Origin: BD2-11 clade cluster bacterium bin43
GTDB lineage: Bacteria > Gemmatimonadota > Gemmatimonadetes > Longimicrobiales > Gaopeijiaceae
Reading direction: 5' to 3'
DNA length: 44,548 nucleotides
Assembly (NCBI GenBank): GCA_002238605.1
Contig: MPMR01000032.1
Span: 1 to 44,548, forward strand
Part shown: piece by piece, positions 13,262-29,278 of the stretch
How the letters are laid out: every line of letters starts with the position of its first letter
Numbering within the stretch: the stretch's first letter is position 1
The notes under the pieces: model-generated
What the model saw: the letters and a program-made list of their open reading frames with translations, nothing else
Databases searched by the model: none
What the model was told of the DNA's origin: nothing
Program-made: the position numbers and the translations under genes

Positions 13262-15316
13262 ATGCAGCGGCTGACCGTCCTCGCGGTTTTGACCTTCCTG
13301 TCGACGTTCGCGTACGCGCCCGAGCGCGCATCCGCCCAAGCCGGCGCCGCGAGCGTCGTGCGGCTCGAGGCATCGCCGCCGTCGGTCGTCGTCATGACGG
13401 GTGAGGAAGTCCCGTTCGAGGTGCGCGCTCTCGACGCCCAGGGCCGCGTGGTGGCGGACGCCCAGGTGCGTACGGTGGCGCCCCGGGCTGCGGCGACCGT
13501 GCGCGGGGGCACGGTCCGCGGACGGACGATGGGCGAATACGAGATCGTGGCGACGCTGCTGACGCCGCCCGGATACGAAGGAACGCCGCCCAGCCTGCGC
13601 GTTCCGCTCACCGTGCTTGCTCCCGAGGTCGCCACTGTGGAGGTCACCGCCGAGCCGGGCCGCCTCTACCGGGGGACCACCCTCCGGCATACCGCTACCG
13701 CGCGCCACGTGGACGGATCGGTGCGGCCGGGCCCGGCCGTGTCGTGGTCCAGTTCCGATCCGTCCGTTGCCACCGTCGACCGTTTCGGCTACGTGACCGC
13801 CACCGGTACGGGTGCGGTCACCATCCGGGCCGACGTGGAGGGGACGGCCGGCACGGCCGCCTACGAGGTGGCCCCGTTCCCCGCGGTCTCGCTGGACATC
13901 ACCGGGCTGGCCGACGAGGTGCGCACCGGTGACGTGCAGCAACTCAGCGCGGTAGCGCGCGACGCGGCCGGCGAAGTGGTCGCCGACGTGCCCGTCACCT
14001 GGACCCACACGGCCGTGCCCGACGCGGACATGATCGCGCCCAGCGCGCCCGGCCAGATCGCGCGCGGCCGCTTCGTCGCCGACGTGCCGGGCGTGTACAC
14101 GATCGTGGCCAACGCGGGTCCGCTGTCGGCGCGCGCGACCCTCCAGGCGGTCGTCCGTGACGCGGTGCGCGAGCTCACGCTGGTGGGAACCGGGAGCACC
14201 GCCACGGTGCGCACCACGGACTTCTGGGTGTTCGAGGGGCTCGACGGCCGCGACTACGCGCTGACGGGCGCCAAGATGTCGGACGGGTACGCCTACGCGT
14301 GGGATGTCACCGACCCGGGCAACATCTTCAAGACCGACTCCCTCCAGGTGGACGCCCGCGCCGTCAACGACGTCAAGGTCTCCCCCGACGCCCGCTACGC
14401 CACCCTCACCCGCGAAGGCGCCTCCAACCGGCGCAACGGGGTGGTCTTCCTCGACCTGGCCGACCCGGCCCACCCCGTGATCGCCTCCGAGGTGGTCGGG
14501 GGGCTCACGGGCGGGGTCCACAACGCCTTCCCCGACGACGACTACGCCTACGTGCTCGCAGCCGGCGACAAGTACGTCATCATCGATGTCGCCGACATCT
14601 ACAACCCGCGCGTGGTCGGCGAGTACAACCATCCCGACAGCCGCCTCCACGACGTCTGGGTGCTCGACGGCATCGCCTACTCGGCCGAGTGGGAGAAGGG
14701 CATGGTGGCCGTGGACGTTGGCAACGGGCGCTGGGGGGGCACCCCGGAAAACCCGGTGCTCATCTCGGAACTGGCGGTGCCGACCGGCACGACCCACGCG
14801 ATCTTCCCCTACCGGTCGCAATCCAGCGACCGGTTCTACGTGTTCGTCGGGGACGAGAACATGCAGAGGAGGGGACTCGCCAACGCGGGCCCCCGGGGCG
14901 GCGGAACGTACCAGCTGCCGTATGACCCCGAGACCGGGATGAACGGGATACCGCTCGCGACCCAGGGCTACATCCAGGTGATCGATTTCACCGATCCCGA
15001 CAATCCGGAGATGGTCGCCCGCTACGAGGTCAGCGAGTACGGCACTCACAACATCTGGGTGGAGGACGACATCCTCTACCAGGCGTACTACGAGGGCGGC
15101 CTGCGCGTGGTCGACGTTTCCGGCGAACTGATGGGCAACCTGTACACCCAGGGCCGCGAAATCGCCGTGCACAAGTCCACGGACGTGAACGGCTGGGTGC
15201 CCAACTCGACCATGGTGTGGAGCGCGATGCCCTTCAAGGGCCACGTGTTCTTCTCGGACACCAATTCCGGGCTCTGGTCGGTGAAGGTGGAGCCGCCGGA
15301 TCGGCCGGTGTCGTAG
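13262..15316 (+). CDS. secreted Ig-like (BIG2) and LVIVD-repeat protein
   Basis: A 684-residue exported protein of unknown function. A signal peptide (MQRLTVLAVLTFLSTFAYA) is followed by two or three Ig-like modules (residues ~25-300); the second has the BIG2 signature VSWSSSDPSVATVD and 'GYVTATGTGAVTI'. The C-terminal 380 residues are a beta-propeller built of LVIVD repeats, recognisable from 'YAYAWDVTDPGNIF', 'VFLDLADPAHPV', 'VIIDVADIYNPRVVGEY' and 'IQVIDFTDPDNPEMVARYE'. Such proteins are frequent in Gemmatimonadota-like genomes. It probably acts at the cell surface or in the periplasm. GGAG lies ahead of the ATG. The next gene overlaps its 3' end. Confidence 0.8.
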   Translation: MQRLTVLAVLTFLSTFAYAPERASAQAGAASVVRLEASPPSVVVMTGEEVPFEVRALDAQGRVVADAQVRTVAPRAAATVRGGTVRGRTMGEYEIVATLLTPPGYEGTPPSLRVPLTVLAPEVATVEVTAEPGRLYRGTTLRHTATARHVDGSVRPGPAVSWSSSDPSVATVDRFGYVTATGTGAVTIRADVEGTAGTAAYEVAPFPAVSLDITGLADEVRTGDVQQLSAVARDAAGEVVADVPVTWTHTAVPDADMIAPSAPGQIARGRFVADVPGVYTIVANAGPLSARATLQAVVRDAVRELTLVGTGSTATVRTTDFWVFEGLDGRDYALTGAKMSDGYAYAWDVTDPGNIFKTDSLQVDARAVNDVKVSPDARYATLTREGASNRRNGVVFLDLADPAHPVIASEVVGGLTGGVHNAFPDDDYAYVLAAGDKYVIIDVADIYNPRVVGEYNHPDSRLHDVWVLDGIAYSAEWEKGMVAVDVGNGRWGGTPENPVLISELAVPTGTTHAIFPYRSQSSDRFYVFVGDENMQRRGLANAGPRGGGTYQLPYDPETGMNGIPLATQGYIQVIDFTDPDNPEMVARYEVSEYGTHNIWVEDDILYQAYYEGGLRVVDVSGELMGNLYTQGREIAVHKSTDVNGWVPNSTMVWSAMPFKGHVFFSDTNSGLWSVKVEPPDRPVS

Positions 15317-28477: not shown

Positions 28478-29278
28478 ATGTCACGAATGGAAGAATGGGA
28501 ACACCGCGAACTGCGGCTGGACGATGCCGCCTTGGCGGAGCGGAGGGGCGAGGGCATCCGCATCGCGGTGGTGGACAGCGGGGTTCACTCGCTGCATCCG
28601 CATGTGGGTGGCGTCGCGGGCGGGGTGGCGATCGGGCGGGACGAGACGGAAGCCGACGACTACCTCGACCGGCTCGGCCACGGAACGGCCGTCGCCGCCG
28701 CCATCAGGGAGAAGGCGCCCGGAGCCGAGTTGTTCGCCGTGAAGGTCTTCGGCGACCGCCTGGCGACCAGCTGCGGCGCCCTGGTGCGGGCCATCGAATG
28801 GGCGGCGGAGCACGAGGCGCGGCTCATCAACCTCAGCCTGGGGACGACGAATCCGGCGCATGAAGTCAGGCTCGCCGAGGCGGTGGCGGGCGCTGCGGAT
28901 GCCGGATCGCTCGTCGTGTCGGCACGTTCCGGCGGTGGCCGAACGGGAGAGGAGGGAACGCCGGAGGGCGAAGGCGTGCGCTGGCTTCCCGGATCGATCC
29001 CCGGCGCCATCGGCGTGCTGCTGGACTGGAGCTGTCCCCGCCATTCAGTGCGGGTGCGGACCGACCACCGGGGAGCCCCGGCGTTCCTCGCCTCGGGTTT
29101 TCCGCGGCCGATCCCCGGCGTCTCTCCCGCGCGCAACCTGGGCGGCATCAGCTTCGCGGTGGCCAACGTGACGGGCGTGCTCGCCCGGCTGCTGGAGGCG
29201 GAGCCGAAGGTGCGGAGCGCGAGCCAGGTCTTCGAGTCCGCCCGCCGTCACGCCGTCCTGCGGCCGGCCACCCAGTAG
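28478..29278 (+). CDS. qhpE: subtilisin-like protease, QhpE
   Basis: QhpE removes the leader of the gamma subunit after crosslinking. The 266-residue protein has the subtilase triad: Asp in RIAVVDSGVHSLHPH, His in RLGHGTAVAAA, and Ser in GGISFAVANVTGVLARL, with the oxyanion region 'RLINLSLGTTN'. It has no signal peptide, as expected for the cytoplasmic QhpE of Paracoccus. In that organism qhpE directly follows qhpF; here hipBA and vapBC lie between them, so this gene needs its own promoter, which I could not identify. ATG 28478 is the chosen start; GTG/ATG codons further upstream lack similarity. Its last 31 bases overlap the convergent permease gene. Confidence 0.85.
   Translation: MSRMEEWEHRELRLDDAALAERRGEGIRIAVVDSGVHSLHPHVGGVAGGVAIGRDETEADDYLDRLGHGTAVAAAIREKAPGAELFAVKVFGDRLATSCGALVRAIEWAAEHEARLINLSLGTTNPAHEVRLAEAVAGAADAGSLVVSARSGGGRTGEEGTPEGEGVRWLPGSIPGAIGVLLDWSCPRHSVRVRTDHRGAPAFLASGFPRPIPGVSPARNLGGISFAVANVTGVLARLLEAEPKVRSASQVFESARRHAVLRPATQ

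What the first reader, a model, noticed from the sequence alone, without database searches (positions are those of the whole stretch)
15217..29278. Rearranged quinohemoprotein amine dehydrogenase locus
qhpA-D-C-B-F lie in the Paracoccus order, but qhpE is separated by two toxin-antitoxin modules and a probable qhpG is 2 kb upstream, behind SUMF1 and ribbon-helix-helix/SRPBCC genes. No AraC-type qhpR is visible. It is seen directly that the alpha, gamma, beta and maturation genes co-occur; the function is from the family; the conservation of the pathway in this lineage is an inference.
Basis: partly seen in the sequence, partly recalled or inferred. Interest (0 to 1): 0.75.

Follow-up and report, generated by a model that had tools for sequence, protein, structure and literature searches.

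The report
Five-cysteine amine dehydrogenase locus
This is a complete set of genes for a known bacterial enzyme that burns amines, interrupted by a few later gene insertions; its smallest subunit keeps an extra, invariant cysteine that the crystallised versions lack and that may form one more internal cross-link.

Summary
The genes are real. The window encodes a full quinohemoprotein amine dehydrogenase (QHNDH) pathway, qhpG-A-D-C-B-F-E, in a Gemmatimonadota genome. The locus is not scrambled: G-A-D-C-B-F-E is the commonest order among 99 related loci (45 in full), and a paper already calls qhp order variable. This genus inserted SRPBCC/RHH (some SUMF1) between G and A; between F and E lie vapBC (older) and hipBA (seen only here). 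No linked AraC gene was found in the relatives either.

The less ordinary feature is in QhpC. Besides the four cysteines known to form thioethers it has a fifth, Cys61, six residues before an invariant Asp67. All 188 related loci (91 distinct cores) have it, as does one Novosphingobium plasmid. Nine Paracoccus, Pseudomonas, Cupriavidus and Leisingera records and both PDB sequences have Ala. QhpA and QhpB hold no conserved spare cysteine. I propose a fourth QhpD-made Cys-Asp cross-link, at about 35%; unproven.

The parts
15217..16980 (+). qhpG, flavin monooxygenase predicted to dihydroxylate the CTQ-precursor Trp43 of QhpC (true start unsure; FAD part begins about 15337)
   Evidence: NCBIfam QhpG 238.4 bits, cut-off 240; E42, R89, W183, D260, P267, R307 kept; R47 to Ser, R70 to Asn, R314 to Ala
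17014..18135 (+). FGE/SUMF1-like protein between qhpG and qhpA, present in some genus members
   Evidence: PF03781 E 3.8e-48; long match at this place in L032, L036, L038, partial in L030, none in L029, L033, L035, L037
18047..18688 (-). SRPBCC/AHSA1-like protein
   Evidence: PF08327 E 1.5e-10; same place in 8 of 8 genus loci that span it
18685..18954 (-). ribbon-helix-helix protein, divergent from qhpA; candidate local regulator (inference)
   Evidence: RHH/ParD matches just under their cut-offs; same place in 8 of 8 genus loci that span it
19012..19022 (.). TATGC-C-GCATA, 5-bp inverted repeat in the conserved rhh-qhpA interval (candidate operator, inference)
   Evidence: identical in window and 8 of 8 genus loci aligned; position and single occurrence in the window
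19063..20859 (+). qhpA, di-heme alpha subunit
   Evidence: QH_alpha 478.4 bits; PF09098, PF14930, PF09099, PF09100; only the four heme Cys
20856..22439 (+). qhpD, radical SAM/SPASM thioether-forming maturase
   Evidence: quino_hemo_SAM 556.5 bits, cut-off 453
22481..22897 (+). qhpC, gamma subunit precursor: leader of about 62 residues, then from 22667 the mature part with C7, E16, C27, D33, C37, C41, W43, D49 and the additional C61 and D67
   Evidence: QH_gamma 109.2 bits; PF08992; PDB alignment; conservation; sequence
22847..22849 (+). codon TGC of the fifth cysteine (Cys61, mature numbering)
   Evidence: Cys in 91 of 91 distinct gamma cores; Ala in 1jju_C, 1jmx_G and nine plasmid-borne genes
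22935..24128 (+). qhpB, beta subunit (divergent)
   Evidence: QH_beta 65.7 bits, cut-off 223.2; no Cys
24310..25974 (+). qhpF, ABC exporter predicted to export QhpC (true start perhaps upstream of 24310)
   Evidence: PF00664 and PF00005; 59-63% identical matches in loci of other genera
26050..27653 (+). hipB-hipA-type toxin-antitoxin pair, at this place only in this genome
   Evidence: HTH_31/HTH_3; HipA_C and Couple_hipA; no hit in 7 of 7 genus loci that span F-E
27718..28386 (-). vapBC/FitAB-type toxin-antitoxin pair
   Evidence: PIN and FitA-like RHH; both genes at the same site in L037, vapC-like fragments in L029 and L031, none in L030, L035, L036, L038
28406..29278 (+). qhpE, subtilisin-like protease predicted to remove the QhpC leader
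   Evidence: QH_SP 153.5 bits, cut-off 165; PF00082; only match in genome

Best explanation
The locus makes a periplasmic quinohemoprotein amine dehydrogenase and the machinery that matures its gamma subunit. By homology, QhpD cross-links QhpC with Cys-Asp/Glu thioethers in the cytoplasm, QhpG adds two oxygens to Trp43, QhpE removes the leader, QhpF exports the peptide, and it joins the di-heme alpha and the beta subunit to pass electrons from primary amines to the respiratory chain. The cluster belongs to a large Gemmatimonadota/Acidobacteriota branch whose commonest order is G-A-D-C-B-F-E and in which no linked AraC gene was found; this genus inserted SRPBCC/RHH, SUMF1-like and toxin-antitoxin genes. 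Its gamma subunit carries a fifth invariant cysteine, Cys61, placed C-x5-D before Asp67. The single most specific role I can name for it is a fourth QhpD-made Cys-Asp thioether. Shown: gene content, orders, conservation of Cys61 and Asp67 in the sequences read, no conserved spare Cys in QhpA and QhpB. Inferred: all chemistry, and the cross-link in particular (about 35%). The confidence given is for the pathway and its history, not for the cross-link.
For: Family matches; single strong copies. PF08992 in 75 of 395 genomes of the phylum and 29 of 396 of the phylum of an Acidobacteria genome, G405; 0 of 14 control genomes in both. Order: 45 of 99 loci read G A D C B F E in full (repeats not removed). 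Fifth Cys: 80 of 80 genome-contig loci, 78 of 78 places, 30 of 30 places; pooled with repeats 188 loci, 91 distinct cores, all with Cys61 and Asp67. It also occurs in two Trp42-type sequences, L187 and L216, and in Novosphingobium L154. In a quick QhpD tree of 93 rows the Ala61 rows form one clade (9 rows, SH-aLRT 100) with the Cys61 row L217 beside it. QhpA has only four common Cys columns (89 of 92 rows each); the best Cys column in QhpB reaches 6 of 101 rows. PapB, the second-best family for this QhpD, is reported to cross-link CX1D to CX5D to completion (PMC9413430, passages).
Against: QhpB misses its curated cut-off widely and QhpG and QhpE miss theirs slightly. For the cross-link: Asp67 is also kept in the eleven Ala61 sequences read, so its conservation has another reason; 27-34% of core positions have a nearly invariant acid 6 to 9 residues downstream, so spacing alone is weak. 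Two AlphaFold2 runs were poor (mean pLDDT 52.1 and 56.2); both put Cys61 in a helix that ends before Asp67, which would not favour an i to i+6 bond. The second model matched no PDB chain at E 0.001 or better and neither 1jju nor 1jmx is listed, so I do not trust it. QhpG here lacks Arg47, Arg70 and Arg314, whose change in the P. putida enzyme cost activity and/or substrate binding (PMC7876137, passages).
Confidence: 0.85

Rival explanations
1. Cys61 is a free or packing cysteine, perhaps on one helix face with Trp57, Ala64 and Trp68; the locus is an ordinary QHNDH operon with insertions and no extra cross-link.
For: Asp67 is conserved with or without Cys61; low-confidence models place Cys61 in a helix; Ala fills the site in one clade.
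Against: No residue but Cys at position 61 in 91 distinct cores; a mere packing cysteine would be expected to drift to Ala or Ser. A free thiol near a reactive quinone would be a liability (inference).
Confidence: 0.45
2. Cys61 bonds to something other than Asp67: another invariant acid (Asp18 or Glu31), an aromatic residue, or another protein by disulfide.
For: Asp18 and Glu31 are invariant in the 58-row core alignment.
Against: The three known bonds all run from Cys to an acid 6 to 9 residues downstream (PMC8172795, passages); QhpA and QhpB have no conserved spare Cys.
Confidence: 0.15
3. The locus is a decaying remnant, with qhpE and qhpG cut off by insertions and non-functional.
For: qhpE starts 2.4 kb after qhpF, behind two toxin-antitoxin pairs.
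Against: The frames are open; qhpE and qhpG are 75-82% identical to genus relatives; heme motifs, QhpC cross-link residues and most QhpG residues tested are kept. qhpE is also not next to qhpF in some relatives (for example about 5 kb off in L076).
Confidence: 0.05

Closest known systems
QHNDH of Paracoccus denitrificans and Pseudomonas putida (PDB 1jju/1pby, 1jmx/1jmz; species names from the papers and recall)
   Same: Di-heme alpha, beta, and gamma with C7, E16, C27, D33, C41, D49 and the C37/W43 CTQ residues in register; same maturation genes
   Different: Here a fifth gamma cysteine Cys61 (Ala there), Phe42 instead of Trp42, a leader of about 62 instead of 28 residues, and a beta subunit far below the QH_beta cut-off
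qhp cluster of Leisingera aquaemixtae plasmid NZ_CP041161
   Same: Order G-A-D-C-B-F-E by tblastn with the window's proteins
   Different: Linked AraC-type and aldehyde dehydrogenase genes; Ala61 gamma
PapB ranthipeptide (freyrasin) maturase
   Same: Second-best NCBIfam family for this QhpD (289.9 bits, cut-off 340, not met); makes Cys-Asp/Glu thioethers and tolerates spacing (PMC9413430, passages)
   Different: Acts on a short peptide, not an enzyme subunit

Membership tests
QHNDH (enzyme) | Di-heme alpha subunit | tested here: met
   QH_alpha 478.4 bits against 274.35; four Pfam domains over cut-off
QHNDH (enzyme) | Gamma subunit with Cys7-Glu16, Cys27-Asp33, Cys41-Asp49 and Cys37/Trp43 | tested here: met
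   Residues present in register with 1jju_C and 1jmx_G; whether bonded is untested
QHNDH (enzyme) | Beta subunit over the QH_beta cut-off | tested here: not met
   65.7 bits against 223.2, though top model and in place
QHNDH maturation set | QhpD radical SAM maturase | tested here: met
   556.5 bits against 453
QHNDH maturation set | QhpG over curated cut-off | tested here: not met
   238.4 against 240; next model 120.6
QHNDH maturation set | QhpG residues reported as important (E42, R47, R70, W183, R314) | tested here: inconclusive
   E42 and W183 kept; R47 to Ser, R70 to Asn, R314 to Ala; numbering carried over through the P. nitroreducens protein by fitting offsets, and R111 could not be placed surely
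QHNDH maturation set | QhpE over curated cut-off | tested here: not met
   153.5 against 165, top model
QHNDH maturation set | Dedicated QhpF exporter | tested here: inconclusive
   General ABC exporter models only; position conserved
QHNDH maturation set | Linked AraC-type QhpR | tested here: not met
   Two HTH_18 matches in the genome, none on this contig
QHNDH (enzyme) | Amine oxidation and CTQ formation | not testable with these tools
   Needs protein chemistry

The most novel reading that the evidence does not exclude
The crystallised QHNDHs belong to a derived four-cysteine branch; the older form, kept here and across Gemmatimonadota and Acidobacteriota, has a gamma subunit with five intrachain thioethers, the additional one being a QhpD-made Cys61-Asp67 bond.
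Probability: 0.35. Interest if true: 0.6.

Novelty: new variant of a known kind. Interest (0 to 1): 0.4.

Why it matters
It shows that the gamma subunit known from two crystal structures may not be the general form of this enzyme. A further cross-link would make QhpD a maturase that installs four bonds in one protein, and mass spectrometry can test it simply. In this genome, annotation by curated cut-offs would miss qhpB, qhpG and qhpE, so the pathway may be under-counted in these phyla.

Tried and rejected
A scrambled operon was rejected: the order is the commonest one in related loci. A disulfide partner for Cys61 in QhpA or QhpB was sought and not found. Mature Asp36 as partner was rejected because L187 has Gly and L216 Ala there. 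Mature Asp56 was rejected because L107 has Ser and L134 Asn there. AlphaFold2 gave no usable gamma model, and fold searches with the second model gave nothing significant and did not list 1jju or 1jmx. A viral-contig scan confirmed no relative. Chromosomal Pseudomonadota could not be sampled, so the Ala61 side rests on nine plasmid records and two PDB sequences; I read 10 of the 26 plasmid records found, and the tenth, Novosphingobium, has Cys61. How common each form is in nature is therefore unknown. The papers on one crystal structure from each species and on QhpD were not held. Seven paper searches listed no paper whose title or shown start of abstract speaks of a fifth cysteine in QhpC; apart from one section and passages of PMC7876137, and passages of PMC8172795, PMC9413430 and PMC6662431, no text was read.

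Full report
What is there. One search lists the open frames and name them: qhpG, SUMF1-like, SRPBCC (-), RHH (-), qhpA, qhpD, qhpC, qhpB, qhpF, hipB-hipA, vapC-vapB (-), qhpE, then an amino acid permease on the other strand whose end overlaps that of qhpE. The window is a whole contig (44,548 bases) of a 4.47 Mb genome. The six most similar named records are three titled Gemmatimonadetes and three titled Gammaproteobacteria bins; the next ones are Gemmatimonadota and Longimicrobiales. I take the host as Gemmatimonadota and the Gammaproteobacteria titles as mislabels.

Family tests. QhpA, QhpD and QhpC pass curated cut-offs; QhpG and QhpE fall just short and QhpB far short of theirs, each still with the matching model on top. 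In the genome PF09100 and QhpE have one match each; the QhpG model has one at 237.9 bits and five at 25.2 or less; the QhpD model one at 557.4 and two at 38.8 or less.

Gene order. In other genera of the family the cluster is G-A-D-C-B-F-E without the insertions (L025, L026, L028, L040, L042). Of 99 loci mapped, at least 12 of which repeat others, 45 show that order in full. Many others show it with one end missing, often at a contig end. There are true exceptions: no qhpE was found after qhpF in L079, L080, L081, L089 and L099 although 2.8 kb or more of sequence follows, qhpE is about 5 kb off in L076, E and F lie upstream on the other strand in three loci, L107 reads D-C-A-B-F-E-G, and G is on the other strand in L027 and its repeat L088. 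A detached qhpE is therefore not unique to this window. Leisingera aquaemixtae has G-A-D-C-B-F-E, and the annotation of two more Leisingera plasmids fits it. Paracoccus pantotrophus has A-D-C-B-E-F with a QhpG-like gene reversed. PMC7876137 (introduction read) says that arrangement, order and strands vary and that the operon occurs in over 1300 species.

Insertions. In the eight genus loci that span the G-A interval, SRPBCC and RHH genes are present in all; a SUMF1-like gene gives a long match in L032, L036 and L038 and a short one in L030. Of seven genus loci that span F-E, vapBC is there in L037, vapC-like fragments remain in L029 and L031, nothing is found in L030, L035, L036 and L038, and hipBA is found in none. 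vapBC thus looks older and repeatedly lost, hipBA recent; that history is inference.

Regulation. The RHH gene is divergent from qhpA. The interval holds a block conserved in the window and eight relatives, including the inverted repeat TATGC-C-GCATA. Four AraC/HTH queries hit nothing in 99 loci; a sigma-54-type (Fis) query hit in L147 and L148. The genome's two AraC-type matches lie on other contigs. An RHH repressor in place of QhpR in this genus is possible and untested; RHH matches are absent beside qhpA in the other genera.

The fifth cysteine. Mature QhpC numbering falls in register with the published one: C7, E16, C27, D33, C37, C41, W43, D49. It adds C61, with D67 six residues on. Cys61 is present in 80 of 80 genome-contig loci (the 80 most similar of at least 588, so biased to the window; four bear Gammaproteobacteria or Rhodospirillaceae titles, the others Gemmatimonadota, Acidobacteriota or groups within them), in 78 of 78 places, and in 30 of 30 places of the Acidobacteriota sample. 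Pooled with repeats, 188 loci give 91 distinct cores, all with Cys61 and Asp67. In one search two rows lack part of the other pattern (L024, whose N-terminal part is out of pattern, and L186, Trp at position 27); both keep Cys61. One alphaproteobacterial plasmid, Novosphingobium L154, also has it. The nine other plasmid records read (Paracoccus, Pseudomonas, Cupriavidus, Leisingera) and the two PDB sequences have Ala61 with Asp67 kept.

History. A quick QhpD tree of 93 rows (of 109 collected; short or identical rows dropped) puts the nine Ala61 rows in one clade, beside L217, an Acidobacteriota-sample row with Trp42 and Cys61; Cys61 lies on both sides of the midpoint root. One Cys/Ala change suffices. 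L217 and L218 sit on long branches and the root is for drawing only, so loss in the Paracoccus/Pseudomonas branch is favoured, not shown.

Function of Cys61. QhpA has no common cysteine beyond the hemes and QhpB none, so a disulfide inside the enzyme is unlikely. The known bonds run from Cys to an acid 9, 6 and 8 residues downstream (PMC8172795, passages). C61-x5-D67 fits, and PapB, a relative of QhpD, joins CX1D to CX5D completely (PMC9413430, passages). Against this, Asp67 is conserved without Cys61 too, the spacing has a 27-34% chance background, and low-confidence models suggest a helix there. I give the bond about 35%; that Cys61 is merely free or packing stays somewhat likelier (45%).

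QhpG. In this branch Arg47 is Ser in 11 of 11 and Arg70 Asn in 12 of 12 rows readable at those sites, window included, of 14 branch rows aligned; these 14 were picked by me from the loci, not all. Glu42, Arg89, Trp183, Asp260, Pro267 and Arg307 are kept in the window, Arg314 is Ala; a few branch rows differ at Glu42, Arg89 or Pro267. PMC7876137 (passages) reports loss of activity and/or weaker binding on changing Glu42, Trp183, Arg47, Arg70 or Arg314 in the P. putida protein, so docking of QhpC may differ here.

Verdict. A complete, known system with lineage-specific insertions; the rearrangement itself is ordinary. The invariant fifth cysteine makes it a variant worth a simple mass measurement.

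Noticed in passing
window 19012-19022: Inverted repeat TATGC-C-GCATA between the divergent RHH and qhpA genes, identical in nine genus sequences.
   Followed up: partly
window 27718-28386; L037 13134-13775; L029 13175-13267; L031 4490-4624 (locus coordinates in cluster orientation): vapBC-type pair at the same F-E site, whole in two genus members and as weak vapC-like fragments in two others.
   Followed up: partly
L217 and L218 (one genome, G784, of the Acidobacteriota sample): One genome with two different Trp42-type QhpC genes, both with Cys61; the L217 QhpD groups with the Paracoccus type.
   Followed up: partly
L034, L077, L083, L092, L103: Some Gemmatimonadota loci have qhp genes spread out, with qhpD or qhpF several kilobases from qhpC-qhpB.
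   Followed up: no
L079, L080, L081, L089, L099: No qhpE found after qhpF although 2.8 kb or more follows; where their leader protease lies is open.
   Followed up: no
L220 1165-2481: A HipA-family toxin gene also lies near the qhp cluster of a Leisingera plasmid.
   Followed up: no
window 29248-30555: Amino acid permease gene overlapping the end of qhpE on the other strand, next to qhpE in all seven genus loci that reach it; could carry amines or products.
   Followed up: no
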